Assembly: GCA_028583605.1 (NCBI GenBank)
Contig: CM053329.1
Span: forward strand, 12,572,501-12,636,500
DNA: 64,000 nucleotides
Source of the DNA: Dastarcus helophoroides
Taxonomy: Eukaryota; Arthropoda; Insecta; Coleoptera; Bothrideridae
Direction of reading: 5' to 3'
The notes under the pieces were generated by a model. The model worked only from the letters and a program-made list of their open reading frames with translations. It was not told the origin of the DNA and ran no database searches. Numbering within the stretch: position 1 is the first letter of the stretch; each line of letters opens with the position of its first letter. The translations under genes and the position numbers were made by a program. Below, in pieces: positions 8,440-52,680 of this stretch.

Positions 8440-11400
8440 TGCTCGAAAAGCTTTCGTTTATAAGTTTACAGTTGAAATTTAAAATAACAACTAACAAGAT
8501 TGAGATAAAACTTTCGAAAACAAAAGTCAGTTATGGTTAAAAAAATAATGAAAATTGTTTGTATATAAATTTTAAGAAACCACAGAAAATTTTGCAGGCA
8601 TTTAAATAAAACTCTCCATATAACGAGAAGAGTATAAAAATTTCGAGATGAAATTAGAAATTTTGCAAAAAAAACAAAACCAAATACTAAGCTTAAAGTC
8701 AAAACTTGGAAAAAAAATTATTCCGGTTTTTATTCTTCATATTGAGAAAAAAGATAAAATCTCTAGAATTTAAAATTTCCAGGTAAGCAAAATTAAAAAA
8801 AAAGGTTAATAGCAAAAGTGTGAATTTTGAAAACATTTTGAAAATAGAACGTAAATTTTACATGAAAGGTGACATTTTAAACTTAGTCAAAATTTCGGAG
8901 TTTACTATATTAGGTTAGAAATTAATAGAACGAAATACAAAATTTTGAAATTTAGGTCGATATTTCGGAAAAAGTCCTTTGGAAAAAGTGAACTTTTCGA
9001 GTTAAAACCACGAAAAACAGTAAAACTTATAAGATTTAGTTTTAAACAATATTCGAAATTTTTTTTGACTTCGAAATGCACAAATATTTTTGACAAAATT
9101 TACAAAAGAATCAAATCAGTTTTAGTTTTCCATATAATTTCATGAAAAAATTCGAGCTTTTATTCGAAATTTGGAAAATATGCAAGTTCGTATTTTGAGA
9201 TTAGGTTTTAAAATATTTAAAAAAGAGGACATATTTTAGAAACATATAGATTTACATCTAAAAAATGGACGATAATTGCAATTTTGAGAAAATGCTGTAA
9301 ATTGTTTTTTTTTTAAATTAATTCTTGATATTTTTGGTAATATGAAATTGATTAAGTAACGTATTTTTTTAGACAACTGAACTGAAACTTCAGAGTAAAT
9401 TTCAAAGAAAACGTTTAGAAAAATAAAAACCGGAGATTTATAACAATAAACAAAGGCAAATTTAAAGTCGAAATTTCTAATTTGAAATTGCAAATTCGAA
9501 AAACAAATGCGGCTCTTTTGAAGGAAAATTGCGGCTCTTTAAATTCCCCTAAAAAAATAAATAAATAAAAGCAAGAGTGGACTGACACGCAGACACTCAT
9601 TAAACAAGTGGCCCACAGAAGTCGAAATTTCCAAAATTACTTTTCTAGGAATTTTACGTTTTACTTAAATTTTGACAAAAAGTTATAATTTCAAGAAGTA
9701 TTTTTCAAATGTTTTTTATTGATTTGTAATAACATTTTGCAAAAACACATTAAATTTACCATTTCTAGAAAAAGACCAACTTGGGGAGTCGAAATTTCTA
9801 AAAAATATTTCTTTCGTTATTTTTAATTTTATATCTGTAAATTTTTTAAAACCTTAAGATTTCGTGAAAAAGGGTGAATTCCTTTTTGTGGAAAAAAAAT
9901 TTAAATTTACAGAAACGGCAAATATCAGTTCGAAATAAAAGCTGAAATTCCCAGAAAAAGCCGAATTTTTAAAAAAAAAATTCGAAAAAATTAAGAAAAA
10001 GAAAGACTTCGAAAAAATTGTAGAAAAGGAGCAGATTTCGAAAAAACTAAGTAAAAGGAATTTATCAAAAACTCCCACTAAAAGGTAAAATATTAGAAAA
10101 AAAAACGTAGAATTTCGACAATAGATTGAAACCCAGGACAAATTAAAAACCTGGAATTTTTAGACAATTTTGGTTATTTTGAAATATAGTAACATTTCGA
10201 AAAGAGAAATTGTAAAAATCAACTGAAAATTGTCGATCTTAAAAAAAGGCGAAAAAGAAGTGAAGAAGAGAAAGTTCAATTTTAGGAAAAATTTTATGGC
10301 AAAAGTGCAGAAGAGCTCGAAATTTCGATGAAAAATTACAATTTTTCAGAGAAAGGTACATTTTAAAAATAAATTTGCATTTTCGAAAACAAGACGAAAT
10401 AAAAAAAAACTCCAAATTTTCAGATAAATTTGAATTTTAAGAAAATTGGTAAAATAATTTCGAAAGAAAATTTTAAGAAGTATTCTGCTTTACAAAAAGG
10501 TTAAAATTTCTCAGAAAAAGCCGAATTTTGAGAAAAAGGAAGAGATTTATAAAAAAAATTGGAAAAAATTAAGAGATTACAAAAAATGAATTTGTCTAAT
10601 TCGGAAAAAGGGAAAAATTTCAAAAGAAAATAATTTATCGAAAGTTTTCAAATAAGGCAAAATTTTAGAAAAAAACGTCGAATTTTGACAATAGATTGAA
10701 ACCCAAAACAAATTTAAAGACCTGAAATTTGTAGACAATTTTAAATGTTTTGAAAAATTGCAACATTTCGAAAAGCGAAATTGTAAGAAAAAACTGAACA
10801 CTTAGAAAAAATAGTTGAAATTTAGAAAAGTCAAAGTTTTTCAGAAAATAAGAAAAAGTCAAATTTTAGAAAAAATTTCATGGAAAAAGTTAAAATTTAA
10901 AGAAAAGCTTGAAATTTCGACAAAAAATATACAATTTTTCAAAAAGAGTTAAATTTTGAGAATAAAAAAATAAATTTGTCCAAAGTTCTCAAATAAGAGC
11001 AAACCTTTCAGGAAAAAGAGTCGAATTTCGACAATAGAATGAAACCCAAAACTAATTTAAAAAACTTGAAATTTTCAGATAAAAGAGAAATTGTAAAAAT
11101 AAACTGGAAGCTTAAAAAAGTGTCGGGCTTTAAAAAAGTTGAAGTTTTTCAGAAAATAAGACAAAGTCAAATTTTAGGAAAACTTTCAAGAAAAAAGTTA
11201 AAATTTTAAGAAAAGCCCGAAATTTCGACAAAATTTTACAATTTTTCAAAGAGAGTTAAATTTTGAGAATAAATTTAAAATTTCAAGAACAATACGATTT
11301 AAAAAAAATCCAAATTTTCAGATAAATTCGAATTTTGAGAACAGAATTTTGAAAGGAAATTCCAAGAAAATTTTGAGAAACGTTTTAAAAGGTCAGAATT

Positions 11401-13560
11401 TCCCAGAAAAAGCCGAATTTTGAAAAAAAGAAAGAGATTTCGAAAAAAAATTGGGAAAAATGATTTTAAAAAAAATGAATTTGGTCCAAAGTTCTCAAAT
11501 AACAGTAAAATTGTAGGAAGGAAAAAAAAAGTCGAATTTTGACAATAGATTGAAACCCAAAACAAATTTAAAAAACTTGAAATTTTCAGATAAAAGGGAA
11601 ATTGTAAAAATAAACTGGAAGCTTAAAAAAGTGTCGGACTTTAAAAAAGTTGAAGTTTTTCAGAGAAGTAGAAAAACGTCAAATTCTAGAAAAAATTTCA
11701 AGGAAAAAGTCAACATTTTAAGAAAAGGTAAAAATTTCGATAAAAATTTGCAATTTTTCAGAAAAAATTAAAATTTGAGAATAAATTTAAAATTTCGAAA
11801 AGAAATCGAATTAAAAAAAAAACTCCAAATTTTCAGATATATCGAATTTTGAGAAAATTGGTAAAATAATTTTGAAAGAAAAGAGAACGTCGATAAAACT
11901 TCCAGTTTCAAGAAAAGTACTGAATTTTAGAAAATGGTCAAAATTTCCCAGAGAAAGTCAAATTTTAAGAAAAAATAAAATTTTTATAATTGAAAATAGA
12001 CGAATTTAGTTCGAAATAAAAGTTAAAATTTTCAGAAAAAACCGAATTTTGAAAAGAGGTTTCGAAAAAACTAAATTTATTAAAAGTTATAAAAAAAAAA
12101 TAAATTAAAAAAAAACCTGAAATTTCGACAATAGATTGAAACCCAGAACAAATTTAAATACTTAAATTTTCAAATTTAAATTTTGTGAAAAATTGTACAA
12201 ATTCGAAAAGAGAAATTGTAAAAAATTGAAAGGTTAGATCGAAGTTTTGAAAGGCCTAAGTTTTTCAGAGAACAAGAAAACAAAAAATTTGCATTTTTCC
12301 CGAGAAAGTTAAATTTTGAGAATAAGTTTAAAATTTCGAGAATAAGACGAATTAAAAAAATGTTTAGATAAATTCGAATTTTAATAGAATTGGTAAAACA
12401 ATTTTTAAAGGAAAGACAATGTTGATACAAATTTCAGATTTAAGAAAAATGTTAAACTTTAAAGAAAAGTGAAATTTTGAGAAAAAAAATTAAATTTTGA
12501 GATACAGTGAAACATTTTGAAAATTGACAAATTGTCGAAAAACTTGCAGCTTGCAGGAACAATAAAATGTCGAATTTTAAAAGTCCAAATTTCCGAAAAA
12601 CTAAATTTAACGAAACAAGTCCAAATTTGTAGAAAATAAATTGAAGTATAAATGTTTAGTAAAAGTCAATATTTGGGGAAAATGACCAAATTTGAAAATA
12701 GGATGAATTTTGAAAAGAGTATATTAATTTCGAGAAAAGTGTTGAAGGTCAAAATTTTCCAGAGAAAGTTAAATTTTGAAATTAAGTCAAACATTTTGAA
12801 AATATGTAGATAAATTAAATTGAAATTTGCTGAAACAATAAAATGTTGAATATTAAAAGTCGAAATTTCGAAAAAAATAACGAATTTTGCTAAACAAGTC
12901 CAAATGTTTAAATGTTTGGTGAAGGACAGTTTTGGGTAAAATGGCGAAATTTGGTAAAAGGACAAATTTTAAAAAGAATGAAGACACTTCTAGAAAAGGC
13001 TGTAATTTAGAACAAAGTCGAAAAAATGTAATTTTGGAGCGAGGCGAAATTTGAAAATAGATCTAAATTTTGAACAAATAAACTTTGAAAAATAGGGCCA
13101 ACATCTTCAAAAACTAGTTTACCTAACATCTTCACTCACTTCACATTTTTACTTTCTTTAATAAAAAATCGACAAAAGATGAATTTTTGAGAAATAAGTC
13201 GAATCTTCCTTCAAGTAAGACGAATTAGAAAAAGTAAACCTTTTCACAAATTGTCGAGTGTTGAGAAGAAAGAAGGATTTGGGGTAAAAGACTCATTTTA
13301 GGAACAAAATAGATATTAAAAAAGAAGACTAATATAGAAAAGGGTTAAAAAAGTCTAAACTGTGAAAAAAAAACAAGAAAATTTTGAAGTAAAGGTTTAA
13401 ATTTTGAGGAATACAAGGTTTTTTTGGGGTGAATATATTTTCGTTTGACCGCATGAGTTAGAGAAGTCTCTCTTTCTGTCCCATGTTTTGTTAGATTTAT
13501 CTGATTTAATTTTAAAATAAAATGTAAAATCAGAAGTAAAAATTTGTGGCTCTTTGAAAT
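8440..13560. repeat. Fuzzy A-rich array with higher-order units
   Basis: Five kb built from endlessly varied words of about 15-25 nt such as 'gaaaaagtcgaaatttt' and 'gagaataaatttaaaattt'. There are no genes; the many 60-100 codon open frames are by-products of the low complexity. Between about 9800 and 12200 a higher-order unit is visible. The marker 'caatagattgaaaccca' starts at 10119, 10689, 11032 (one change), 11543 and 12129, giving steps of 570, 343, 511 and 586 bp. Near each marker lie the same sub-blocks in the same order. The same unit returns at 16607 and 18113. Confidence 0.8.
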
Positions 13561-15073
13561 TCACGAAATAATTTTTTTTTGTGGCTGGCTCTTTCGGTTA
13601 AAAAGTTTGCCAATCCCTGGCCTAGGGCGCCGAATTTGATGGGAAAACTTCCCAATAACCACTTGCTTGTTTTGAAGATTAGCTGACTTAATCAGATCCA
13701 ATAAAAGCAACCCGTTCTTATTTCCCTGCTTATTGAGAATCTGCGATATATTAGGGTCCAAAATAATTTTAAAAAACTTTCACTAATATGTACGTAATGT
13801 CAAAAATGAACCTCGAAGTAATTCAGGGAGGCCTTAACGATATATTTAATTAATAAGGTCACTTTAACCCCAAGGGGTAAATACCTGCGAATTCTTGGTG
13901 CGGAATTTCTAGCTTGGACTGCAAGGCGGTTAACCAGGTATTAGCACAATATCCATCCCTTTCGGCTACCAAAGGAGCCAGCAATTAGGTCAATATTCAG
14001 CCACCTACAAAATCCAACCTGTGGCGTTACGTTTAACTTTCAAATAACCCAACGTACGAAGAAAACGTAAAATCGCCTCGACCTTAGGGATGAAATAAAA
14101 CGTTCTTTTAATTGAGATACATCGAGGAGAAAGAGGAATTCGAAACACGGCAAAAAACCTTTTAAGCAAGTTCTTGTTTATCGAGGTTCCTTCAGTACAG
14201 GAGCGGTAAACGTAAATAAATATCGCTGAAAGCATTTTCCCTAATAGACCCTTCAAAACGCCCGTGATTTAATTTGGAATTGGAGATGTATAACCGACGT
14301 CGTAGGTACGTTTCGAATCAATCAAGCTTCGAGGAAACTCCTTATCTCAAGTCACTCATCCTTCGAATAGAGTCGACATAATTTGAATAGTTCTAATAAG
14401 GCAATAAATTTCAAATGAATTCTACAGCTTACGAGCTGCTTCTCCTACTAAAGCTCTATCACAAAGATCGATTTTTTGTATCCGAAGAGAGTTAAAATCA
14501 AATAATTGTCTCCGACTATAAATGAGCTTTAATTTAATTTTGTAATTACAATGTGATTGTACTGGCATCAAATGTACGAACTCGGAATGTTCAAGCTTCC
14601 AAAATTTTCTGGAATAAGCGTTAAGTTTAAGAAAACATTTTTGTGAATGTTCTAGTGTTTTAAATCCAGTTTGGGTTAGGATTTAGTATTACATGCTCTA
14701 AAGAGTCTGTCATCCAGAAACGTTTGTTGTGATTTAATTTATGGGATGCCAAGATGTAGAATGGATAAATGCTTCTACCAGATATTGATTGTTTGTTGGT
14801 CTGGCAGCATAAAAGGTAATTAATATTCCCAGGCTCTATTTGAGGTGCTTAAGGGTCTGTTTCTCGCAAAAGCATCTGAACTTTGTTCTACTTCATAGAA
14901 GCAACTTTTTGTTATTTTTTGAATGTTTACCTATTTTGCAATAACATATAGCAGTAATTACAGCGTTAATTAACCAATGCTTTTAATCTTTAAACTTTTT
15001 AATCCCAGAATTTTCCTATTTTGTTGTTTGAAAATTTTATTCACATTTTTTCCAATTATGGATTTCTACTTAC
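13561..15073. other. Noncoding DNA, probably intron of the EF-hand gene
   Basis: Base composition becomes more balanced than in the flanking arrays, and no repeats are obvious from about 13780 to 15070. I searched for the next EF-hand exon, which should lie at lower coordinates on the minus strand, and did not find it. A phrase near 13600 ('gtttgccaatccctgg') resembles the end of a hAT-type MITE, but no partner was found. Confidence 0.45.
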
Positions 15074-15147
15074 CTCAAAACTAATCAGTCCACTATGATC
15101 CTGGTCAAGGGTATTGAACACATAATGAGCATATTGGCTGGTGTTAG
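15074..15147 (-). CDS. Internal exon of a KChIP/NCS-type EF-hand calcium sensor
   Basis: A 74-nt internal exon on the minus strand, bounded by an acceptor ending TTTCAG (just above 15147) and a donor GTAAGT (just below 15074). It enters in phase 1 and encodes NTSQYAHYVFNTLDQDHSG followed by LISFE. The DQDHSGLISFE stretch is an EF-hand loop (D1, D3, S5, G6, I8, E11). The preceding YAHYVFNTLD helix is typical of Kv-channel-interacting proteins and related neuronal calcium sensors, which bind Ca2+ and modulate A-type potassium channels. Helix and loop together correspond to the second EF-hand region of such proteins. No neighbouring exons were found in the window, so the introns must be long. 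It is the only host exon I can support; KChIP rather than another NCS member is my best reading, not proven. Confidence 0.82.
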
Positions 15148-15269
15148 CTGAAACAAACAAAACTAGTAAAGATTGGTGTAAATCAGATTTCCGAGTCGTT
15201 TGATGATGCTGATATCGAAATGATACGAGGGCTTTCTTTTTAGTTTTGCACATAGCCATAGGCATTTAA

Positions 15270-15560
15270 CTTTTATTTTTCTTTTCTTAATTTTCCTGAA
15301 GGGTCCTTTTTTTCTTCTATTTCTGAAGTTAAGTCTTAATTGCCCAATACTTTTTTCTATATCGACCCCTTTTTTAAATTCCGAGAAGATTTTTTAAACA
15401 TTCTCGACTTTGTATCTACTAATTTCCATTTTATTCAAATTTTGAATTATTTTAACAAAATAGCAAGTTTAAATTCGAAATTTTGTCCGTAAAGAGTTGT
15501 AGACTTTTTTCAGAACTTATAATTCTAATTTTGTTATTCCAGAGTTACAAAAAAGTATTT
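15270..15560. repeat. Array-edge segment shared with 41210-41500
   Basis: Shares ordered similarity with 41210-41500, including 'tttcttaattttcc', 'cta(c/t)taatttccatttta', 'tttaa(a/g)ttcgaaatttt' and 'ataatttaatttt'-like phrases at matching spacing. It therefore belongs to a dispersed repeat rather than being a random low-complexity match. Confidence 0.6.
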
Positions 15561-17328
15561 ATTTTTTAATTAAATACGGAATTTGAGAATAAGGTAAAAG
15601 CTTAAGATTGAATTTTGGAAATTAAACTTGAAATTTGGTGAAATATCAAGATTTATAAAATAATTCAAAAACTCACAGTTTTTATACTTGGAAACTTTTT
15701 CAAAATTTACAGAGTTTTAGGTTTTCACTTGTAATTACTATTTTTTTCTTAATTTTAGGCATTACAATTGAAATTTCGTTATTTAAGTCGAAATTTCAGT
15801 AAACAACTTTAATATTTTAATACTCATTCGACTATTCAACTTGAAAACCAAAATTTTGTGAACGAAGTGAAAATTTAGAGTTTAAAATTACAAATTAAAA
15901 TTTCAAAAAGATAGTCAAAATTTCTCAAAATCGGAATATTGCTTAGAAACTTTTTAAATTTTTCAAAATAATAGAAACTATAAAATAGAGACTTTAAAAA
16001 AATTAAGAAAAAAGAAGAGATTTCACAAAAATTAAGAAAAAGAAAGAGATTTCGAAAGATATGAAGTTTTAACCAAATTTGAATTTTTCGAAATATAGTA
16101 AAATTTCGAAAAGAGAAATTGTTAAAATTAAATGGATCCTTAAAAAAATTGTCGATCTTTTAAAAAGTCGAAGTTTTTCAGTAAAGAAGAAAAAAGTCTA
16201 ATTTTAGGAAGAATTTCATGGAAAAAGTTTAGAACAGTCCGAAATGTCCATAAAAAATTGCATTTTTCCAGAGAAAGCAACCTTTTCAGAATACATTTTC
16301 AATTTCGAGAACAAGACGAATTAAAAAAAAAACTCCAAATTTTCAGTTAAATTCGAATTTTAAATAAATTGGTAAAATACTTTTGAAAGAAAATTCCAAG
16401 AAAGTGCTGAACTTGAAATAAAGGTCAACATTTTCCAGAAAAAAATCGAATTTTGAGGAAAAGGAAGAGATTTGGAAAAAAATCGTTAAAATGAAGAGAT
16501 TAAAACAATGATTTGCCTGATTGGAGAAAAGGAGAAAGTTCGAAAAAAAACGAATTCATCGAAAGTTCTCAAAAGGAACATTTTAGAAAAAAACGTCGAA
16601 TTTCGACAATAGATTGAAACCTAAAACAATTTAAAACCTGGAATTTGTAGACATTTTTGAATTTTTTGAAAAATTGCAAAATTTCGAGAAGATAAGTTAA
16701 GAGAGTAAACTGTAGTAAACTTAGAAAAAAAGTTAAAATTTAAAAAAGTCAAAGTCTTACAGAGAAGAAGAGAAAGCTCAAATTTTAGGAAAAATTTCAA
16801 GAAAAAAGTCTAAATTTTAAGAAAACCTTGAAACTTTGACAACAAATTTACAATTTTCCAGAGTAAGTTAAATTTTGGGAATAAATTTGAAATTTAGAAA
16901 AAAAGACAATTTAAAAAAAACCAAATTTTCAGATTAATTTAAATTTTGAGAAAATGTGTACAATAATTTCGAAAGAAAATTACAAGAAAATTTAAAGGAG
17001 TATTTGACTTTAAAAAAAGATCAAAATATCCCAGAAAAAGGCACATTTTCAGAAAAAGAGGTTTCGAAAAAAAAAATTGGGAAAAATTAAGAGATTAGAA
17101 AAATGAATTTGTCTAAAGTTCTCAAATAACCAAGAAGAATGCAACCTAGACTACAAATTCATGCAGCCCTCCAGGCGTGTATAGTGAAATCAGGTAGCTG
17201 CTGAACTACCTACCAACAGCTGAAACACTGCCACCTAGCAAAGCAGTTGCTCCCTAGGAGAGTTCCCAGAAGACGAGGATTCTATAATGCACAGACCAAA
17301 TAAGGTTTGAACATTTATTATATTTGAA

Positions 17329-17389
17329 GTTTGGAAACCAAATACCGGTTTCGATCTTGTTAGATCTCGTCAGTTTGGTATATTCAACT
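17329..17389 (-). ncRNA. Hammerhead ribozyme (type I), minus copy
   Basis: On the minus strand the motif reads ACCAAA, CTGACGA, stem II GATCT-AACA-AGATC, GAAA, CCGGTA, TTTGGT. All core bases of a hammerhead are present and helix I pairs perfectly (ACCAAA/TTTGGT). The plus-oriented copies nearby have the same structure, so this is an inverted unit of the same family. Confidence 0.75.
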
Positions 17390-17581
17390 CGAATGCTAAT
17401 AAATGTTCCGACAAGTAAGTACTAAAACATTCACAGGCGTCAAGCGAGAGACTCTTTAGTACTACCACCTATTGTTCCATAGAGAAACTATGGCCATCGC
17501 CAACAATGTTGTATGCAAGAAGAATGCAACCTAGACTACAAATTTCTGCAGCTCTCCAGGCGTGTATTTATTAGCATTCGA

Positions 17582-17641
17582 GTTGGATATACCAAACCGA
17601 CGAGATCTAACAAGATCGAAACCGGTATTTGGTTTCCAAAC
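17582..17641 (+). ncRNA. Hammerhead ribozyme, mutated core
   Basis: Same architecture as the copy at 17959-18018, but the core reads CCGACGA instead of CTGACGA. The invariant U4 is therefore C, which should abolish or strongly reduce cleavage. Helices I and II are intact. The predicted cleavage position is after 17627. Confidence 0.7.
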
Positions 17642-17958
17642 TTCGAATCTAATAAATGTTCAAACCTATTGGTCTGTGCATTATAGAATCCTTGTCTTCT
17701 GGGAACTCTCCTAGAGAGCAACCGCTTGGCTAGGTGGCAGTGTTTCAACTGTTGGTAGTTCAGTTACCTGTGATTCATTATAAACGCCTGGAGGGCTGCA
17801 TGAATTTGTAGTCTAGGTTGCATTCTTCTTGCATACGACATTGTTGACGATGGCCATAATTTCTCTATGGACCAATAGGTGGTAGTACTAAAGAGTCACT
17901 CGCTTGACGCCTGTGAATGTTTTAGTACTTACTTGTCGGAACATTTATTAGCATTCGA

Positions 17959-18018
17959 GTTGGATATACCAAACTGACGAGATCTAACAAGATCGAAACC
18001 GGTATTTGGTTTCCAAAT
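17959..18018 (+). ncRNA. Hammerhead ribozyme (type I), complete core
   Basis: The full consensus is visible: CTGACGA (17974-17980), stem II GATCT/AGATC with loop AACA (17981-17994), GAAA (17995-17998), then C-C-G-G-T-A with cleavage triplet GTA after 18004. Helix I is ACCAAA (17968-17973) with TTTGGT (18005-18010), then an internal loop ATAT/TT, then TTGG/CCAA. An internal loop in helix I opposite a stem II loop is usual in fast natural hammerheads. Helix III is the palindrome ACCGGT with no loop, so pairing would need two RNA copies. Dimeric hammerheads of this kind are known from retroelement families. Confidence 0.85.
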
Positions 18019-18932
18019 TTCGAATCTAATAAATGTTCAAACCTATTAGTCTGCGCATTATATATAGGATTCTCAAATAAGGGCAAAATTTCAAAAAGAA
18101 GTCGAATTTCGACAATAGATTGAAACTCAAAACAAATTTAAAAACTTGAAATTTTTATATAAAAGAGCAATTGTAAAAATAAACTGAAAGAATAAAAAAG
18201 TATAGGTTTTTAAAAAAGTCGATAAAAATTTCGATAAAAATTTCGATAAAAATTTGCAATTTTCCAGTGAAAATTAAATTTTGAGAATAAATTTGGAATT
18301 TCAAAAACAAGACGAATTAAAAAAACTCCAAATTTTCAGATAAATCGAATTTTGAGAAAATTGGTAAAACAATTTCGAAACGAAAGAGAATGTTGGTAAA
18401 ATTTTCAATTTCGAGAAGTGTTAAACTTTAAAAAAAGAGGTCAAAATTTCCTAGAGTAAGTAAAATTTAAAAAAAAATCCAATTTTGAAATTTGAATTTC
18501 GTTCGAAATAAAAGTTGATGTTTCCGGAAAAATTCGTTATTTAAGTCGAAATTTCAGTAAACAACTTTAATATTTTAAGACCTATTTCACTATTCACTAT
18601 TCACTATTCAACTTTAAGACCAAAATTTTGTGAACAAAGTGAAAATTTCGAGTTTAAAATTTCAAATTAAAATTTCAAAAAGACAGCCAAAATTTCTCAA
18701 AATCGGAATTTTGCTTAGAAACTTTTTAAATTTTTCAAAAAAATAGAAACTATTTTTGAATTTCGACTTCAGAAGCAAAATGTGGAGAATAAAGTCAAAA
18801 TTTTGAGACTTAAATCGAAATTTCATGAAACAAGTTCAAAATGTTCAAAACTGAAGTTGAGAGTTTGAGAAAAATTGAAATACAAAAATTGTCCCCTGAA
18901 ACCAAGAAGGATTAAAACACACAACAAAGGTT

Positions 18933-18970
18933 GCTCTAACGCATTTCGACAGCGAAGCTATCATCTTCAG
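18933..18970 (-). ncRNA. Hammerhead-like motif, family 2
   Basis: On the minus strand: CTGAAGA, an extra T, stem II GATAGC-TTC-GCTGTC, GAAA, then TGCGTTAGAG. Stem II pairs over six positions, one as a G-T wobble. CTGAAGA fits the CUGANGA core with N=A, and GAAA follows stem II directly. The extra T after the core and the very short helix III make activity uncertain. Similar shapes are known from Penelope-like elements. Confidence 0.5.
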
Positions 18971-19054
18971 CATCTCACTGAAAATGATAGCTTGGCTGTC
19001 GAAACGCGTTAAAGCAACCTTTGTTGTGTTTTTTAATCTTTCTTGGTTTCAGTC

Positions 19055-19105
19055 AGTATCTCTCTGAAGATGATAGCTTGGCTGTCGAAATGCGTTAAAG
19101 CAACC
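19055..19105 (+). ncRNA. Hammerhead-like motif, family 2
   Basis: CTGAAGA (19064-19070), T, GATAGC/GCTGTC stem around TTG (19072-19086), GAAA (19087-19090), TGCGTT. The copy about 86 bp upstream reads CTGAAAA in the core and would be inactive, but it has CGCGTT after GAAA, giving the palindrome ACGCGT for helix III. This parallels the ACCGGT palindrome in family 1. Confidence 0.5.
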
Positions 19106-19200
19106 TTTGTTGTGTTTTTTAATCTTTCTTGGTTTCAGAAAACAATGATTGTATTTCAATTTTTGAAGATAACCAAGGACCAGTCTGTTCCACCAAAATT

Positions 19201-21262
19201 GAGAAAAATTGTAAACTTCGACTGAAATATCAAAATTTTATGTTATTTAAAGAGTTTGTTAAAATTTAGACTTTTAAAAACAAAATTTAAAGAAACGAGT
19301 GAAAATTCTAAACTTAAAATAGGATATATTTAAAAAAATTCTGAAAAAAGTCAAAAAATTTAAATTGGAAATTTTAAATTATTTTCTTAAAACATACACT
19401 TTGAAATAGAATTTATAGAAAAAAAGTCGAAATTACAAGATTTCCAAAATTTGCGTTTTACAAATGTCAATTTTTATTGATTTTTATTTATTTTTTTTTC
19501 TTAAACTTGAATGTAAAATCCATATTTTCTTAAACTCGAATTTAGAATCCGGAATTTTAGATTCAAGTCAAAATTCTGCAAAAAACTTTGAACAAAATTA
19601 TGCCAGAAATTTAAAAATTTTTCACGGAATTCTGAAATAAAAAAAGACGTTGCGTGAATTTTTTCCAAATAATATTTTTTCGAATTATCTGAAATGATAG
19701 TTTACTTTAAACTTTATAAAAGAATTTTTTCTTTTGCTATTTTTATTTTGATTGGAAAGTAAAGGCTGAAAATTTAATTTTACGTTCTAGAATTGCAATT
19801 CCAAATAAAAAAAAACAATTTCAGATTTAAATTGGAAATTTTGAAATAATAACCAAAATTTTTGAAAAATTCTAACTGTTCTCTTTAGAATTAAACGTTG
19901 AATTATGAAAAAAAAAACGATTTGATATTTGAAGTGAAATTTTTGAAAAATAGCAGCAGATTTAAAAAAAAAATTAGATTTATGTAAGTAACTTCTCAAG
20001 TTCCCATCAGTCACAAAACTTTGATTTTAAATTGAAATATTTGATATTCTTGTCGACGTTTTCCATGAAATTTCAAAATCTTTAGAAAAATTCGAATAGT
20101 TTAAACTTTAAATTAAAAATTTCGAGAGAAAAGCTTAAAATTGGGCTAACGAATTGCAAACTTATAAAAAAATCTTTTGACACGTATTCCTTCTTTCAGT
20201 TCTCTAAGCAGGTAAAGTACATAGTTAGAATTAGGTGACTTGAAAATGCTTCCTTTAACCCTTTTTGTTTTCTGTTAATTCCTTTAAAATTACCATATAG
20301 TTTTCTACAAAGATGCGGAAGCACAGTCTTTTCTCGAAATTACAAATTTTCTCCGAAAATTCTTCTTTGTTGACACTTTGTCTTTACTCTCAAAATTAAA
20401 CTTTTTTCAAAAAATTTGACTTTGAGACAAATTGTTTCTAAATTTCCACAAAATTTTTACCTTGTTTGTTTTAATTCGTGCCTCTGGAATGTTGCCATTT
20501 TTCTAAACTTTGGTTGTCTAATAATTTCGACTTTTTTTCTAACAATTCGAATTTTGGTAAATGTTAACCTGGTCGGAATTATTCGTTTGTTTACCTTTTT
20601 AAAATGTTGAAATTGACAAAAAAAGCAGAATTTTTTAGAGAAAGTCGAGATCTACAACAAAATAAAAATTTTCTAAAAAAGTTGAAATTTTAAAGAAAGT
20701 CGAGATCTACAACAAAATAAAAATTTCCTGAGAAAGTTGAAATTTTAAACAATTAAAAAGTTCCAAAAATAGCACTATTTTAGAAAAAGGTAAAATTTTG
20801 AAGTGTTTACAAATTTCTAATTAAGTCATATTTTGTTTTTTTAAAAAAGAATTTAAAAGAAGTGGAAATTTTAAAATATCCTAGTCGAAATCATTAAAAA
20901 AGTAGAAATTAAAAACAACAAATTCTTCAAGCAAAATTAGAGATTTTGAAAAAAAAATGAAAATATGTATCTGAAAATAGGAATTGTCAAGAAAAGTCAA
21001 AATACTTAGTGAGTTTTTAAAATTTTCAAAACTAAATAAGGAAAAGTCGAAATTATCATAAAAATCATAGTTCTCAAAAAAATTCATAATTTTCAAAAAC
21101 AGTCCAAAGTTTCAAGATGTCGAAATTGTGAAAAAATTGAAATTTTCAAAAAAAAGTAGATTCTCAAAACAGTGTCAAAATTTTGAAAAAAGACAAAAAT
21201 TTCGAAGAATTCGAAATTTTCAAAGAGCTGCAATTTTTATTTACCCACGCATTTTCTCCTAT
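19201..21262. repeat. Fuzzy AT-rich array
   Basis: Continuation of the array in weaker form. A short tandem pair is seen at about 20641-20750, where 'aaagtcgagatctacaacaa' begins at 20641 and again at 20696 (period 55). The array runs directly into the terminal module at 21263. There are no genes. Confidence 0.7.
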
Positions 21263-24333: not shown

Positions 24334-24410
24334 TCTAGTAATTGATTTTAATAAAATTTATATTTCTGCAAACGATTCTTTTTGGAAATTGCCATTTTTA
24401 TTGAATTCTA

Positions 24411-24497
24411 ACGCACATACCAATAGGTTTGAAAATTTATTAGATTCGAAGTTTGGAAACCAAAGACCGGTTTCGATCTTGTTAGATCTCGTCAAAC
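24411..24497 (-). repeat. Hammerhead family 1 fragment
   Basis: Contains the minus-oriented hammerhead with stem II and GAAA intact and cleavage triplet GTC instead of GTA. The core starts TTGACGA rather than CTGACGA, and the 5' strand of helix I is lost, so it should be inactive. Confidence 0.65.
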
Positions 24498-24729
24498 AAC
24501 GACAAATTAAACAATCATTTTATAACCCAATATTTTCTGTTGAAGATTTTCAGATAAAACTAAGATTTTTTAAAAAAATCAAAAGTTCTAAATATCTTGA
24601 TTTCAAAAGACTTTACTTTTTATTTAAATATTGACATGCTTTTTGAAATTTGATGTCTTTGTCTCTTTTATTAACATTTTGACATAATTCTAAACAACAA
24701 GCTAATTATGAGAAGAAAATAATTAATAC

Positions 24730-24875
24730 TGAAATACAAATATTGTCCCCTAAAACCAAGAAAGATTAAAAAACACAACAAAGGTTGCTGTTTGTAGTGT
24801 TTTCTAACTTATCTTGGTTTCAGGGTACAAGATTTGTATTTCAATTTTTTAAGATAACCAATGACCACCAAAATG
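24730..24875 (+). repeat. Hammerhead family 2 relic, arms only
   Basis: Inverted arms around 'gaaaccaagaaagatt' and 'cttatcttggtttcag', without the ribozyme-like centre. Confidence 0.6.
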
Positions 24876-25154
24876 ATGCACCAAAAAAACTGAAATATTT
24901 AAAAAATGACAAATTTCAAGAGTCAAAATTTCTAACAATCTCTCTTCTAATTTTTAAGCGTCCATTTCAATTTGAACACAATCTTTGGAGAAAAAAGTTA
25001 AAAATTAAGAAGTATTTCGAAAAATAATAACTTTACTAAAATTTTACTTTTTTTTGAAAACTGGCAACATTTTCGAAAACGTGTTGTTGGAGAAAAACAA
25101 AAAATGTTGAAGATTAAGATAAAAGTCAAAATTTTCAGAAATTAACGAATTTTG

Positions 25155-25312
25155 TGTGCATTAGAATCCTTATCTTCTGGGAACTTTCCTAAAGAGCAAC
25201 CGCCTCGCTAGGTGGCAGTGTTTCAACTGTTGGCAGTTCAGCTACCTATGATTCACTATACAGGCCTGGAGGACTGCATGAGTTTGCGGTGTAGGTTGTA
25301 TTCTACTTGCAT
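25155..25312 (+). repeat. Hammerhead family 1 fragment lacking the ribozyme
   Basis: Matches the non-ribozyme part of the 377-bp unit ('ctaggtggcagtgtttcaac', 'cctggagg'), comparable to 44249-44410, and ends at 'cttgcat' as the complete locus does. There is no hammerhead core. Confidence 0.7.
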
Positions 25313-32774: not shown

Positions 32775-33349
32775 AGTAGATATATCATAGTGATTCTGGG
32801 CCAAATGACGTCACAGAATAACTACTTGTCGAACAGTTGGTTTTACTTTTCTAGTAGTTGGTTTCAGTTGTAGAGCTACTTGTCTAACAGTTGATTTTAA
32901 TTCGACAGCTACTTGCCTAACAGTTGTTTAGTTGTTAACAACTATTTGTCTAACAGTTGGTTTCATTTGTACAGCTACTTGTCTAACAGTTGGTTTTAGT
33001 TGGATAGCTACTTGTCTAACAGTTCGTTAGTTGTTTTATCAACATGTAAACTCAGAGCTACCTTTGTTTGTTCTACGCTAACAACTAACGAACTGTTAGA
33101 CAAGTAGTTGTCCAACTGGAACCAACTGTTAAACAAGTAGCTGTATAAGTGAAACCAACTGTTCCAACTGTTAGACAAGTAGTTGTTAACAACTAACCAA
33201 CTGTTAGACAAGTAGGTGTCCAACTGAAATCAACTGTTAGGCAAGTAGCTCTAAAACTGGAATCAACTGCTAGAAAAATAAAACCAACTGTTAGACAAGT
33301 AGTTGTTCTGTGACCTCATTTGGTGCAGAATCGCTATGATACATCTACT
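32775..33349. mobile_element. Fold-back element FB-1 with 6-bp TSD
   Basis: A 575-bp palindromic element. Its ends are AGTAGATATATC (left) and GATACATCTACT (right), flanked by the direct repeat GAGTTT (32769-32774 and 33350-33355). Each arm is built from short tandem units around 'caactgttagacaagtag' or its complement, repeated roughly every 30-60 bp, with a small unpaired centre near 33050. No protein is encoded. The same family is seen at 37723-38234. Confidence 0.85.
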
Positions 33350-37130: not shown

Positions 37131-38650
37131 GGGTGTAACAGGATCATGGTACACCCCCTATTTTTTTTATTTATAAAGATAAAATTTTCAAAGTTGCCAC
37201 ACTTGATGTATTTATGAAATGTAAAATTTTGACATAAAATTGACATTCCTGCTGCTATCGCTTTTGCTAAAACTAATACCAACTTTTGATTTTTAAATAG
37301 AACACCCTATATATTTTTACATTTTTAGAATTTGCACAATTTTCTGGATACAATACACACAAAATAAATGATTTTTAATGGATCTAAAATTTTATTGGTC
37401 CCATTTTATTTTTCAGCCTAGAAGGTCATGACTCATCCTAATAAATGCTAACTGACCACATTAGCGCTGCAAAAAAATTAAATGAGGAAAACTTAGGAAG
37501 TGTCGTTTTTCTAAATTTGTTTTTGACAGGTATCTTATGTTTTTACTGAATAAATCTTTAAATAAATTGAAACCGAATATTTTGAATTATTTTGCCTAAA
37601 ACTTCAGTGCTATTGATTTCATAGCAAAAATGAAAATATGGTTAGTTTCGCCACTAATTACACTTTTTGGTGGTACGACATTACCAATATGGTGCCATTT
37701 AAGAAAATGAAGTTATGACATAAGTAGATATATCAGGAAGATTCTAGGACAGATGACGTCACAGCAGCTTCGGATGACATGTCGCTGAATAAGTAATGAG
37801 GCGGGGCAGGTTGGGTATCAAATGAAAGGGTGTGTACTTCTCTAACAGTTGGTTTTACTTATCTAACAGTTGGTTGCAGTGGTACAGCTACTTGTCTAAC
37901 AGTTTATTTCAGTTGGAGAGCTGCTTGTCTAACAGTTGGTTAGTTGTTAACAACTACTTGGTTAGACAAGCAGCTGGCCAATTGAAATCAACTGTTAGAC
38001 AAATAGCTGTACAACTGAAACCAACTATTAGACAAGTAGCTGTTAACAACTAACCAACTGTTAGACAAGTAGCTGTACAACTGAAACCAACTGTTAGACA
38101 AGTAGCTGTACAACTGCAACTGTTTTACAAGTACATTTGATACCCAACCTGCCCCCCTCTCTACTTCTTCAGCGACATGTCATCCGAAGCTGCTGTGACG
38201 TCATATGTCCTAGAATCCCCCTGATATATCTACTGACATAAAAACCATTTTTGTTAATTTTATCACGTGATAAAGGAATGAAATATTCCTTTTTTCACGT
38301 GATTTAATTTATTTAGCGTTAATGTGGTCCATTAGAGTTAATTTTAATGAGCCTTTTAGGTTGAAAAACAAAATGGGACCAAAAAATTTTTCGATCCTTT
38401 CAAAATCACTATTTTAGGTGAATTGTAGTCAAAAATTTGTGCAGCTTCCAAAAATGTAATAATATATAGGGTGTTTCATTTAAAAATCAAAAGTTGGTAT
38501 CAGTTTTAGCGAAAGTGACAGCAGTAGAAATGTAATTTTTATGTTAAAATTTGACATTTTATAAGTACATTAGGTGTAGTAAGTTTGAAAATTGTATCTT
38601 GATAAATAAAAAAAAGGGGGTGTACCATGATTTTGTTACACACAATATAT
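37131..38650. mobile_element. Fold-back element with ~400-bp arms, host of FB-2
   Basis: The outer arms (about 37131-37480 and 38290-38650) are imperfect inverted repeats of each other, sharing 'atcatggtacaccccct' and 'aaaagttggtatcagtttt'-type blocks. The phrase 'acaccctatatattttt' inside the left arm also occurs in the element at 47079-48768, so the two are related families. Flanking TATAT-like sequence suggests a TA-rich target duplication, but the exact ends are not resolved. FB-2 (37723-38234) is inserted in its centre. No protein. Confidence 0.7.
37723..38234. mobile_element. Fold-back element FB-2 with 6-bp TSD
   Basis: A 512-bp palindrome with ends AGTAGATATATC / GATATATCTACT and a perfect 6-bp direct repeat GACATA (37717-37722 and 38235-38240). 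The arms contain the same tandem 'caactgttagacaagtagct' units as FB-1, plus an outer block ('tgacgtcacagcagc') that pairs with the right arm almost perfectly. The better arm match suggests a younger insertion than FB-1. Confidence 0.88.
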
Positions 38651-44166: not shown

Positions 44167-44780
44167 CTATAATGCACAGACCAATAGGTTTGAACATTTA
44201 TTAGATTCGAAGTTTGGAAACCAAATACCGGTTCAAACCTATTGGTCTGTGCATTATAGAATCCTTGTCTTCTGGGAACTCTCCTAGAGAGCAACCGCTT
44301 CGCTAGGTGGCAGTGTTTTAACTGTTGGTAGTTCAGCTACCTATGATTCACTATACACGCCTGGAGGGCTGCATGAATTTGTAGTCTAGGTTGCATTCTT
44401 CTTGCATACGACATTGTTGGCGATGGCCATAGTTTCTCTATGGACCAATAGGTGGTAGTACTAAAGAGTCACTCGCTTGACGCCTGTGAATGTTTTAGTA
44501 CTTACTTGTCGGAACATTTATTAGCATTCGACTTGGATATACCAAACTGACGAGATCTAACAAGATCGAAACCGGTATTTGGTTTCCAAACTTCTAATCT
44601 AATAAATGTTCAAACCTATTGGTCTGTGCATTATAGAATCCTTGTCTTCTGGAACTCTCCTAGAGACAACCGCTTCGCTAGGTGGCAGTGTTTCAACTGT
44701 TGGTAGTTCAGCTACCTATGATTCACTATACACGCCTGGAGGGATGCATGAATTTGTAGTCTAGGTTGCATTCTTCTTGC
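44167..44780 (+). mobile_element. Hammerhead tandem repeat (retrozyme/Penelope-like), locus 2
   Basis: A 614-bp insertion flanked by a 14-bp direct repeat with one mismatch (ATATTCCATTTTTT at 44153-44166, ATATTCTATTTTTT at 44781-44794). It contains a short inverted start (44167-44233), then about 1.45 units in plus orientation. 'cctattggtctgtgcatt' recurs at 44238 and 44615, so the period is exactly 377 bp as at locus 1. One complete hammerhead sits at 44532-44591. Both loci finish at the same point of the unit ('cttcttgcat' here and its complement at the left of locus 1), which supports a defined transcript end rather than random breakage. Confidence 0.78.
44532..44591 (+). ncRNA. Hammerhead ribozyme (type I), complete core
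   Basis: Core CTGACGA (44547-44553), stem II GATCT-AACA-AGATC, GAAA (44568-44571), CCGGTA with predicted cleavage after 44577. Helix I ACCAAA/TTTGGT is complete with the same internal loop as at locus 1. All invariant bases are present. Confidence 0.85.
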
Positions 44781-45647
44781 ATATTCTATTTTTTGATTAA
44801 AGTTTAAAATAAATGTCAACGTTAGTGACGAATTTCGATTTTTTTTTAAACTTTGCTTTGACTTTTTTTGAAACTTGCTACTTTTTTTGAAAACCCTCAA
44901 TCTTTTTGAAAATTTTGAATGTTTATATTAAATTTTCGAAATGTTTAACAATTTTGACTTTTGTTTTCAAATTTTTGCACTATTTTCCAAAATTTTAACT
45001 TTTTTTTTAAATTGTCTTTTATAAATTTCGACCCTTTTTTAAAATTGATCCATTTTTTTCAAATTTTGGCTTTTTCAAACATTTGAAACTTTTTTCAAAA
45101 TATTTTTTAAAACACTTTATTTTATTTCTTTTATTTTTTTTTATTTCGAAATTTCTTAATTTATTCAGTTTTTCATATTTTGGAAAATTTGCCTGTATCT
45201 CAAAATTTGTCTTTTTTTGAAATTTCAATTTTATTTTCAAAGTCCTCCTTTTTGGCCTTTTTTAAAAATGGTTTATTTATTTCCAAATTTTGTCATTTTT
45301 CTGAATATTTCTATTTTTCAACAAATTGCGACTTTTAGCTCAAATAGTTTTATGATTCTGAAACTGTTCACTTTTACCTCTAAATTAGATCGAAATGTTA
45401 ATAAAAATGTTATAAAAAATTTTTTTGAGGATTTTGAGAAAAATATTTCTTGTGAATTCAACATCTTTACTGCATTATAAATTTTGAGAAGAATGTGTTT
45501 AAAAATTGCGATGTTTTTTTGTCAAAATTCTGAAAATTGCGACTTTTCACAAAAATAGACCTTAAAAAATTTTGACATTTTCGAATTATAAACATTTCTC
45601 GAGCTTTTAAGAAAGGTTAGGTTTTTATTTTTAATATATATTAATAA

Positions 45648-50487: not shown

Positions 50488-52680
50488 TAGTAGTAGTAGT
50501 TTATTTTAAATGTATAAAATACATATTAATTATAAATGATTCATAAAAGAATGGTAACAATAGTAATATTAATAATAAATAGATACATATTATGACAAAA
50601 TGACAATAAATTAATCTAACATATTAAAAAAAAATACACATATATAAAATTCCGAATCTATTTTCTAGGGATAATTTTTCGTAAAAGACTCTTAAATTGA
50701 TAGAGGGAATTAGAATTTTTTATTGCGACAGGTAAGTTGTTGAATTCACATAAACCATCAAAAAAAAAGTGATCTTTTGGTACTTTGCTTTTTAACTGTG
50801 TTTATATAAAAATTTGTTGTGTTGCGGGTATTATGGTTGTGAATATCTCTAACATTGATTAAACAAATTTTTAAATAATTCGGCAAAAGGTTTTTAGTTA
50901 TTTTAAAAATAAAGCACATGTTAAGATAGAACAGATATTGTTTTACGGACAAGAACTGGAGACATTCAAGCATGAAGTCAACACTAACATGATTATTGCA
51001 TCGCAAAATGATTCTTAATGCTCTATTTTGTAATAGTTGTAGTTTATTTAAGAGTTCATGAGTGAAATAATGCGTAATTGTTGCGCAATAGATGAATAAA
51101 GGGGCAATCCATGACTTATAGAGGTCAATTCTAGCAGGAAGATTTAAAGATTGACAAATACGCCAAAAATATTTAATTCTAGATGAAAGTTTATCAATAG
51201 TAGACTTAGCATGATTTTTAAAGTTCAGGGATGAATCTATAATAATACCTAAGTATTTGATCTCATTGACATATTCTAAATTTGTTTGGTTTAATATTAT
51301 TGGTCGTATATTAGATGCATCATAGTTTCCCATTATCATTACTTTGGATTTGTTTGTGTTAATTAGCAATTTATTTGTTTGTAACCAGTGACTCATTGAA
51401 TCTAGCACTAAGTTCATTTTCACAATAGCACTGTCAATGTTATCATCAAGCACCGTAACAAGGGTATCATCCGCAAAAAGGTTTAGGAATGTATTTGGAT
51501 CACTAATAACATTTTTTATGTCATTAATATACATTAAAAATAATATTGGTCCCAGGATCGTTCCTTGTGGAACTCCATAAATGTTGTCGACAGGATTAGA
51601 GGAAAATCCATCGATCGTTGTTCTCTGACTTCTGCCAAATAGATATGAACTAAACCATTGCACTGTAGAATCATGAAAGCCCATATTTTCCAGTTTTACT
51701 AGAAGAGTCGATCTATCAATAGTTTCGAAAGCACGTTTTAAGTCGAGGAATGTCGCAATGGCTACACAGTTATTATTGTCCAACCATTTATCCATTTTGA
51801 TACTACTAATTGCAGAGAAGATTCACAGGAGTGTTTTTCACGAAAACCCGATTGCTGTTCAATTAAAATATTATTGGAGTTTATGTAATTAATAAATTGA
51901 GTATATATTAATGATTCAAAAACTTTTTCGAGGTATGGCATAGTACTAACAGGTCTATAATCATTGGGTTGTATTGAATTTGGTACTTTTTGTTCAGGGA
52001 AAATTAATGATGTTTTCCAACGTGTTGGGAAAGTGGTAGTAGAAATTGATTTATTGTATATATCGGTCAATTTGGTTGCAATGAACCCTCCGCCGGCTTC
52101 TATGACAGATTTGGTGACTAAATCAGTCGATGAATTTTTTGTGTTCCTAATGGCCTTTGATACTTCTTCGTACGTAAATGATTTAAGGATAAACGTACTC
52201 TCAATAGGTTCATTTGAGATAGTTGTTCTTGTTGATGGGTTTAATTGTATTAATAGCTCAATGCTATTTACAATAAATTTGTTATAATTTTCAGCAATGT
52301 TTTGGGGGTTAGTTAAATTAATATTATCAAATTCCATTTTTGCGGGAGAAGTTTTTTTGAGCACCATCCATAATTTCTCCAAGTACTTTCCACATCTTTT
52401 TGCTATCATTTTTGTTTTGAATAATTAAATTTGTATAGTAATTTTTCTTTTTCTCCCTTATAAGCTTGGTCACATTATTTCTTAATCTTCTGTATTCTTT
52501 CCAAATGTCGGTGGAATTAATCAAAATTGCTTTCTGGTAATATAGATCTCGATGTTTAGCTAACTCTTTTATTTCCGTGTCGTACCATTTATTTTTACTA
52601 TTATTTACGGTAAATGTTCTTAAAGGTGCAAATTCATCCAAGGCGATAGTGATATTTTCATATATCAGGACAGATTAAAC
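50488..52680 (-). mobile_element. CR1/L2/Jockey-like LINE, 5'-truncated
   Basis: A 2.2-kb non-LTR retrotransposon on the minus strand. It keeps most of the reverse-transcriptase open frame and the whole 3' end. The 3' terminus is a short microsatellite (CTA repeated four times on the coding strand, at about 50489-50500), a tail type common in CR1/L2-related LINEs and different from a poly-A tail. The endonuclease domain upstream is missing through 5' truncation near 52680. Confidence 0.85.
50758..52641 (-). pseudogene. LINE reverse transcriptase with two frameshifts
   Basis: Three overlapping frames together make one reverse transcriptase. The first (52641 to 52327) holds the linker before the polymerase, with KWYDTEIKELAKHRDLYYQK. 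The second (52409 to 51762) holds the fingers, with PNDYRPVSTMPYLEKVFESL and QSGFREKHSCESSL. The third (51795 to 50758, 345 codons) holds the palm, with FLDLKRAFETID (first Asp at residue 18), YGVPQGTILGPILFLMYIND and the catalytic FADD at residues 107-110, then IKYLGIIID and a thumb/C-terminal region. The overlaps mark two single-base-type frameshifts near 51780 and 52380. The catalytic residues are all kept, so decay is recent. It would prime reverse transcription at nicked target DNA. Confidence 0.9.

What the first reader, a model, noticed from the sequence alone, without database searches (positions are those of the whole stretch)
17130..18069. Retrozyme-like element with hammerhead ribozymes in 377-bp tandem register
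Seen: two plus-oriented hammerheads whose predicted cleavage sites are exactly 377 bp apart, one inverted copy, no coding capacity, and an 11-bp target-site duplication in an array whose unit spacing returns to ~570 bp once the insert is removed. Known: animal retrozymes and Penelope-like terminal repeats carry type-I hammerheads with minimal helix III and make variable-length duplications. Inferred: the unit is excised as a 377-nt RNA, possibly circular, and reinserted by a retroelement.
Basis: partly seen in the sequence, partly recalled or inferred. Interest (0 to 1): 0.93.

Follow-up and report, generated by a model that had tools for sequence, protein, structure and literature searches.

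The report
Ribozyme circle copied from both ends
This is a small non-coding insect mobile element whose RNA carries a self-cutting ribozyme and probably forms a circle; the scars it leaves suggest that both broken strands of the target DNA copy the same RNA circle, using an enzyme borrowed from a Penelope-type retrotransposon.

Summary
Window 17130-18069 is a retrozyme-like insertion: three type-I hammerheads (Rfam HH9, E 2e-6 to 1e-5, below gathering), two in exact 377-bp register, one inverted, non-coding, with a true 11-bp target-site duplication that an empty paralogous array unit carries once. It belongs to a dispersed family (2,644 exact hammerhead matches in the 539-Mb genome).

The inverted copy is the rule, and the key. 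Of 42 insertions examined, 37 have two arms; all 37 are head-to-head (minus arm left, plus arm right). Both outer ends are hammerhead-sense 3' ends at two fixed unit positions, A (about u61) and B (about u208). Where both ends could be classified, 34 of 34 have one A and one B. The two arms share alleles, some found nowhere else, so they copy one template. Arms run up to 3.6 laps, through the ribozyme's cleavage point. The predicted fold sets A opposite B.

A resident Penelope-like element (PLE) shows the same grammar: head-to-head arms, one end at each of two 3' sites (7 of 7), duplications of about 12 bp.

Best reading: PLE-driven, two-ended target-primed reverse transcription of one RNA circle. 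Animal retrozymes are known; I found no description of this integration pattern for them in eight literature searches.

The parts
17119..17129 (.). left target-site duplication TTCTCAAATAA
   Evidence: single copy in paralogous empty unit 11208-11877
17131..17567 (-). left arm, hammerhead-sense pointing left; outer (3') end at site B (u204), inner end u153
17319..17392 (-). type-I hammerhead ribozyme, intact core
   Evidence: HH9 33.8 bits, E 2.1e-6
17566..18062 (+). right arm, 1.3 laps; inner end u316, outer (3') end at site A (u58)
17579..17650 (+). type-I hammerhead, core changed to CCGACGA
   Evidence: HH9 31.6 bits, E 1e-5
17628..18004 (+). one full 377-bp unit from cleavage point to cleavage point
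17956..18027 (+). type-I hammerhead, intact core, loopless palindromic helix III ACCGGU
   Evidence: HH9 32.6 bits, E 4.9e-6; loopless helix III read from that alignment
18063..18069 (.). 7 extra bases between the A end and the right duplication
18070..18080 (.). right target-site duplication TTCTCAAATAA
44165..44233 (-). second insertion of the family, left arm, outer end A (u61)
44231..44783 (+). second insertion, right arm, outer end B (u208)
24409..24494 (-). third, older insertion, left arm, outer end A (u56)
25155..25312 (+). third insertion, right arm, outer end B (u207); 660 bp of other DNA lies between the arms

Best explanation
A non-autonomous animal retrozyme. Transcripts of its tandem units are cut by the hammerhead (probably as a dimer of two ribozymes, because helix III is a loopless palindrome) and closed into a 377-379-nt rod-like circle. 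The protein of the resident Penelope-like element cuts both strands of an AT-rich target about 12 bp apart. Each freed 3' end then primes reverse transcription on the SAME circle, one at site A and the other at site B, which the fold holds face to face. Each polymerase runs round the circle for up to several laps; the two cDNAs are joined at their inner ends. The scar is duplication - minus arm - plus arm - duplication. SHOWN by sequence: head-to-head layout, the two end sites, one of each per insertion, duplications, shared alleles of the arms, reading through the cleavage point, and the same grammar in the PLE. INFERRED: circularity, the PLE protein as the enzyme, simultaneity of the two primings, dimeric cleavage.
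For: Layout: 37 two-armed of 42 insertions, all minus-left/plus-right; in a second sample drawn with a junction-free query 27 of 39 loci show both strands, all 27 the same way round, 0 reversed (two of the 27 are also in the first sample); among the first 100 listed of 2,644 exact hammerheads, neighbours within 1 kb on opposite strands are 12 minus-plus and 0 plus-minus, the 5 same-strand pairs spaced 377, 381, 377, 376, 363. Ends: 34 of 34 classifiable insertions have one A (u52-67, median 61.5) and one B (u204-215, median 208), 20 B/A and 14 A/B; chance under independent choice 5.5e-11. Duplications: 23 exact (11-14 bp, mode 12), 11 with one mismatch, 7 not found of 41. One template: biallelic sites agree between arms 28/29, 26/27, 26/27; minor alleles shared between arms 71/197 against a mean fraction of 0.020 (maximum 0.082) in 500 arm shuffles; 10 private alleles in both arms; mean distance same arm 0.0069, other arm of the insertion 0.0096, different insertions 0.0214. 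Circle: 74 of 77 arms cross the cleavage point, 57 exceed one lap, maximum 3.62; only 2 of 66 inner ends lie within 5 nt of the cleavage point; alleles shared by at least 4 insertions are in all laps 61 times, one lap 16 times, some laps twice. Fold: z -8.1, 0 of 100 shuffles as stable; A faces B across helix u49-53/u203-207, in 29 of 30 loci tested, against 9 of 300 shuffles. PLE: RT plus GIY-YIG, 105 scored matches 81-100% identical; 7 of 7 two-armed copies have one alpha and one beta end, duplications of 11-15 bp in all 7. End motifs: A resembles beta (rank 4 of 377 windows), B resembles alpha (rank 7 of 377), not crosswise (167 and 210). Published: a PLE protein cuts and extends both target strands and starts internally at two adjacent RNA sites (PMC11167929, parts 1-2 of 4 read).
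Against: No RNA data; the circle is inferred from DNA. Two of 37 two-armed insertions (L025, L041) have one end elsewhere, one (L021) runs into Ns; 5 of 42 have one arm only; L011, L030 and L018 have broken arms. In the first sample 4 of 33 insertions have inner ends within 2 nt of each other and in the second 3 of 27 within 8 nt, more than expected by chance in the first, which could mean some linear or broken templates. Alleles shared by 2-3 insertions are more often in one lap (63) than in all (16); I attribute that to recurrent mutation without a test. No Rfam hammerhead was found in the PLE loci scanned. PLE arm sharing is weak in L055 (4 of 26 variants) and L059 (5 of 12), and some pairs of different PLE copies are as alike as arms. 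The A/beta and B/alpha resemblances are short.
Confidence: 0.72

Rival explanations
1. Same two-ended priming by the PLE protein, but on an uncut linear multimer transcript instead of a circle.
For: 4 of 33 insertions have both arms ending at the same unit position within 2 nt, as run-off at a shared 5' end would give; six PLE copies, whose template is linear, have inner ends within 2-51 nt. Genomic copies are multimers and could be transcribed whole.
Against: In the junction-unbiased sample the two inner ends lie within 51 nt in 7 of 27, expected 7.4, against 6 of 8 adjacent two-armed PLE copies (the six, plus L052 about 1.4 kb apart and C1:32668517, 321 nt; Fisher p 0.032). About 7 of the 27 positions were estimated from gap lengths, and the PLE pairs were picked because both arms matched the query, which favours similar arms. 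Laps within an insertion carry the same common alleles.
Confidence: 0.17
2. One-ended priming followed by fold-back, self-priming or a jump to an antisense RNA makes the inverted arm, as proposed for Penelope elements in PMC3846280 (passages seen).
For: Head-to-head PLE copies with near-equal arms look like fold-backs; L061 has a complex junction with short repeats.
Against: The second end would not then fall on the other fixed site 34 of 34 times; retrozyme arms are of unequal length with scattered inner ends; the sense RNA is enough if both strands prime.
Confidence: 0.06
3. A LINE of the genome mobilises the element, with L1-type twin priming.
For: LINE-type reverse transcriptase matches are very numerous (150 scored of 16001 candidates for RVT_1, not sorted by class); twin priming gives inverted 5' parts (recalled).
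Against: L1-type inversion leaves a poly(A) 3' end on one side and an internal scattered point on the other (recalled); here both ends are fixed 3' sites. The PLE of the genome shows the same two-site rule and duplication length.
Confidence: 0.03
4. Ordinary satellite repeat with local inversions or assembly artefacts.
For: Tandem 377-bp units; AT-rich repetitive host sequence.
Against: Dispersed over the genome with duplications at most sites, a paralogous empty unit, and a fixed layout in two samples.
Confidence: 0.02

Closest known systems
Metazoan non-LTR retrozymes (Cervera and de la Pena 2020, PMC7229834; abstract, passages and Discussion seen)
   Same: Type-I hammerhead in each unit of a short non-coding tandem repeat (170-400 nt), low GC, PLEs in the same genome; authors name PLEs as a strong candidate for mobilisation and propose circRNA as template.
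   Different: That text describes tandem repeats; the word 'inverted' occurs 0 times in its main text. Here most well-preserved insertions are head-to-head with two fixed 3' ends, one of each, and both arms come from one template.
Penelope-like elements: Anolis Poseidon PAc (PMC11167929, parts 1-2 of 4 and passages seen) and Adineta Penelope (PMC3846280, passages seen)
   Same: Both target strands cut and extended, two internal start sites (the 'tail'), AT-rich targets, inverted pseudo-LTRs head-to-head, short target-site duplications.
   Different: PLEs code for RT and GIY-YIG endonuclease; start sites are adjacent on a linear RNA. In the retrozyme the two sites are 147 nt apart along the RNA but opposed in its fold, and the template appears circular. 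The 2013 paper preferred self-priming on an antisense template; the present data fit two primers on one sense RNA.
Dimeric hammerheads of PLEs and newts (cited in PMC7761336, passages seen; the underlying papers not read)
   Same: Minimal helix III, so cleavage probably needs two ribozymes.
   Different: Activity not measured here.
L1 twin priming (recalled; no paper read)
   Same: Two primers on one RNA give an inverted arm.
   Different: Here both primers use fixed internal sites, one each, and go round more than one lap.

Membership tests
metazoan retrozyme | type-I hammerhead in each unit | tested here: met
   HH9 hits E 2e-6 to 1e-5 though below gathering; 128 of 132 cores intact in sampled loci
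metazoan retrozyme | short tandem units of 150-450 bp | tested here: met
   377-bp unit in the window; 375-382 bp spacings in most fetched loci
metazoan retrozyme | no coding capacity, GC below 45% | tested here: met
   longest ORF 70 aa; unit GC 41.6%, flanks 24.9%
metazoan retrozyme | no LTR, primer-binding site or polypurine tract | not tested
   no LTR pair was seen in the layouts, but PBS and PPT were not sought
metazoan retrozyme | expressed as linear and circular RNA | not testable with these tools
   no RNA data; circle inferred from arms that cross the cleavage point (74 of 77)
metazoan retrozyme | mobilised in trans by a retroelement | tested here: met
   dispersed copies with duplications; identity of the helper inferred from shared grammar with the resident PLE
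Penelope-like element | RT and GIY-YIG endonuclease ORF | tested here: not met
   no such ORF in the insert; the resident PLE has both
Penelope-like element | integration grammar: two 3' sites, head-to-head arms, short duplications (works like, not membership) | tested here: met
   34 of 34 retrozyme and 7 of 7 two-armed PLE copies with one end of each kind

The most novel reading that the evidence does not exclude
A single RNA circle is reverse-transcribed from both strands of the target cut: two primers enter at two opposed sites of the folded circle and two polymerases chase each other round it, giving bidirectional rolling-circle target-primed reverse transcription. One template bridging both DNA ends would also explain the inverted repeats and the optional 'tail' of Penelope-like elements in general.
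Probability: 0.6. Interest if true: 0.87.

Novelty: new variant of a known kind. Interest (0 to 1): 0.74.

Why it matters
How ribozyme-bearing circles get back into animal genomes is open: the Discussion of PMC7229834 leaves priming and the helper enzyme as hypotheses. The scars here answer several parts at once: the helper is very probably the PLE, the template strand is the hammerhead-sense RNA, the start sites are two defined positions, both arms come from one molecule, and the template is continuous across the cleavage point. The same rule gives a simple alternative to antisense self-priming for the long-puzzling inverted repeats of Penelope elements, and defines a 377-nt RNA with two sites that can be tested directly with purified protein.

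Tried and rejected
Rfam at gathering thresholds gave nothing; only the E-value scan shows the ribozyme. The constant sum of inner-end positions in part of the first sample looked like a structural signal but is a selection effect: those loci are the best BLAST hits of the window's own insert, so their junctions resemble it. I therefore drew a second sample with a single unit as query. Apparent '1-50' outer ends proved to be cuts made by the search: two loci fetched to check continue past them. The idea that the TSD belongs to the host array was rejected by the empty unit. MicroRNA and leader matches in PLE loci are palindromic arm junctions. A hammerhead in the PLE 3' region: no Rfam hit up to E 10 in the 221-bp stretch scanned; by eye there is a stem II - GAAA - palindrome remnant, untested. 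Pfam family PF26215 is not in the library of that tool. A genome search with the Rfam family RF02275 was asked many times and never answered, so other hammerhead families of this genome remain unknown.

An earlier count of PLE arms left out L052, whose arms are very unequal; with it the contrast to the retrozyme falls to p 0.032 from 0.007.

Full report
THE OBSERVATION. Cleavage points are 17628 and 18005 on plus, 377 apart, and 17342 on minus. Rfam finds none at gathering, but HH9 matches at E 2e-6 to 1e-5. In plus sense the intact ribozyme has stem I ACCAAA/UUUGGU, core CUGACGA, stem II GAUCU/AGAUC, GAAA and a helix III made of the palindrome ACCGGU without loop, cutting after GGUA. The plus copy at 17579-17650 has CCGACGA in the core. 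The insert has no ORF over 70 aa, GC 40.6% in flanks of 24.9%. TTCTCAAATAA flanks it, and a paralogous array unit at 11208-11877 carries that 11-mer once.

THE FAMILY. The insert matches 264 places from 40 scored of 3753 candidates. An exact 34-place hammerhead pattern occurs 2,644 times, backward control 0. I fetched 39 of the loci besides the window and set unit coordinates with u1 as the first base after the cut, using the 377-nt unit of L034. Three insertions lie in this window alone.

THE GRAMMAR. Forty-two insertions were examined: 39 loci and 3 in the window. Thirty-seven have two arms; in all of them the minus arm is left and the plus arm right, so both outer ends are hammerhead-sense 3' ends. 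Five have one arm (L019, L020, L023, L035, L037). The outer ends fall in two zones, A u52-67 and B u204-215. I set the zones after seeing the data. Thirty-four of 37 have both ends in a zone, and all 34 have one A and one B, 20 B/A and 14 A/B; the rest are L025 and L041 with one end elsewhere and L021 with Ns. Independent choice would give that with probability 5.5e-11. Target-site duplications: 23 exact (eleven of 12 bp, six of 11, four of 13, two of 14), 11 with one mismatch, 7 not found, of 41; two of the 7, L011 and L030, show exact repeats of 12 and 15 bp when their outer fragments are included, and the third window insertion shows 10 bp. Because these loci were picked by similarity to the window's insert, I repeated the layout test with one unit as query: 27 of 39 loci show both strands in the rows listed, all 27 minus-left, none reversed; the list was cut, so the 12 single-strand loci may have short unlisted arms. 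Two loci are in both samples. As a third test, among the first 100 listed hammerheads on contig C1, neighbours within 1 kb are 12 minus-plus, 0 plus-minus and 5 same-strand with spacings 377, 381, 377, 376, 363.

ONE TEMPLATE. The arms of an insertion agree at the common polymorphic sites u109 (28 of 29), u278 (26 of 27) and u290 (26 of 27). At other sites 71 of 197 minor alleles fixed in one arm occur in the other, against a mean of 2.0% (maximum 8.2%) when arms are shuffled between insertions 500 times. Of 170 private alleles at sites covered by both arms, 10 are in both. Mean distances are 0.0069 within an arm, 0.0096 between arms, 0.0214 between insertions. Most of the other private alleles are in a single lap, as later mutation would give.

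CIRCLE OR NOT. Seventy-four of 77 arms cross the cleavage point, 57 are longer than one lap, 21 longer than two, maximum 3.62; an insertion has a median of 2.7 and at most 6.6 laps in all. Inner ends do not gather at the cleavage point (2 of 66 within 5 nt), so the template is not the linear cut monomer. Common alleles are in all laps of an insertion 61 times, in one lap 16 times, in some laps twice. In the junction-unbiased sample the inner ends of the two arms are unrelated (7 of 27 within 51 nt, expected 7.4; several positions estimated from gap lengths). Six PLE copies, on a linear template, have inner ends 2, 6, 17, 18, 23 and 51 nt apart over arms of about 1.1-1.3 kb, as run-off at one 5' end would give; two further PLE pairs do not (L052 about 1.4 kb apart; C1:32668517, 321 nt), so the contrast is 6 of 8 against 7 of 27, p 0.032. 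In the first, biased sample 4 of 33 retrozyme insertions have inner ends within 2 nt, which may be broken circles or linear templates.

THE FOLD. The unit folds at -139 kcal/mol, z -8.1, 0 of 100 shuffles as stable. As a circle (-134.5) u49-53 pairs with u203-207 and u58-62 with u195-199, so A and B face each other about ten base pairs apart. This holds in 29 of 30 loci whose unit carried both motif strings (35 loci had a full unit, 5 lacked a string); 9 of 300 shuffles reach four pairs between the zones, and 16 of 377 rotations of the two windows on the real fold. In the monomer the core strand ACUG pairs with CGGU of helix III, which would mask the ribozyme in a circle; prediction only.

THE HELPER. 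The genome has an abundant PLE with RVT_1 and GIY-YIG domains. Its nearest named relatives are insect proteins (Molorchus minor 53%, Aromia moschata, Tribolium castaneum), so the host is probably an insect. Of 11 PLE loci read, 7 have two arms, all head-to-head; each has one end at alpha (after CUUUGGACUUA) and one at beta (after GUGCUUUAG, about 35 nt on), with duplications of 15, 12, 12, 12, 11, 12 and 13 bp. The other four (L048, L049, L051, L053) show one clear end, alpha or beta; L049 has no convincing duplication. Six of the 7 were chosen as head-to-head pairs, so layout there was selected, but the end rule was not. Arms share 12 of 14, 11 of 11, 3 of 4 and 17 of 21 variants in L054, L056, L057 and L058, but 5 of 12 in L059 and 4 of 26 in L055; different copies share 0.195 on average, up to 0.85. 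The last 16 nt before A and beta, and before B and alpha, resemble each other (ranks 4 and 7 of 377 windows); the crossed pairs do not.

MECHANISM AND LITERATURE. A purified PLE protein cuts and extends both strands and starts at two adjacent internal sites that match the genomic tail (PMC11167929, parts 1-2 of 4 and passages). Inverted pseudo-LTRs, one of them with a tail, are known for Penelope, and were ascribed to self-priming on antisense RNA (PMC3846280, passages). Retrozyme circles as template and PLEs as helper are a published hypothesis (PMC7229834, Discussion). Searches for the combination found no description of head-to-head retrozymes: 'retrozyme' with 'head-to-head' gave 0 papers. 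The library holds open-licence papers only, so this does not show absence from print. The Schistosoma W-element paper (PMC8490949, passages) and two reviews (PMC7761336, PMC11722881, passages) did not describe it in the passages seen.

VERDICT. Membership: animal retrozyme, with the RNA features untested. What it adds is the integration grammar, which makes two-ended priming on one circular RNA by the PLE enzyme the best explanation (0.72).

Noticed in passing
L054-L059 (fetched PLE loci): The resident PLE often forms near-perfect palindromes: two 5'-truncated copies head-to-head with nearly equal arms, joined with small gaps or overlaps.
   Followed up: yes
window 24494-25155: About 660 bp between the two arms of the third insertion; includes an inverted-repeat element (AAACCAAGAAAGATTAAAAAACACAACAAAGG...) that also occurs as an 86-bp tandem pair at 18967-19138 and in L048 4123-4361. 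It may be a later insertion or captured filler.
   Followed up: no
window 32844-33274 and 37856-38120: 33-bp tandem arrays (TACTTGTCTAACAGTTGGTTTCAGTTGTACAGC) arranged as facing inverted arrays.
   Followed up: no
window 50758-52409 (-): Two overlapping ORFs of 345 and 215 aa with reverse-transcriptase-like motifs by eye, LINE-like.
   Followed up: no
window 9000-21000: Diverged AT-rich host array with units of roughly 500-650 bp (paralogous alignments at 57-73%), the substrate of the insertion.
   Followed up: partly
L061 660-690: Junction of two retrozyme arms with a repeated 28-bp stretch at one point (u244-272), as if a polymerase slipped before the arms were joined.
   Followed up: no
L053 1337-1400 (-): PLE 3' region has a stem II - GAAA - palindrome (AUACGUAU) arrangement like a degenerate hammerhead; no Rfam support.
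   Followed up: partly
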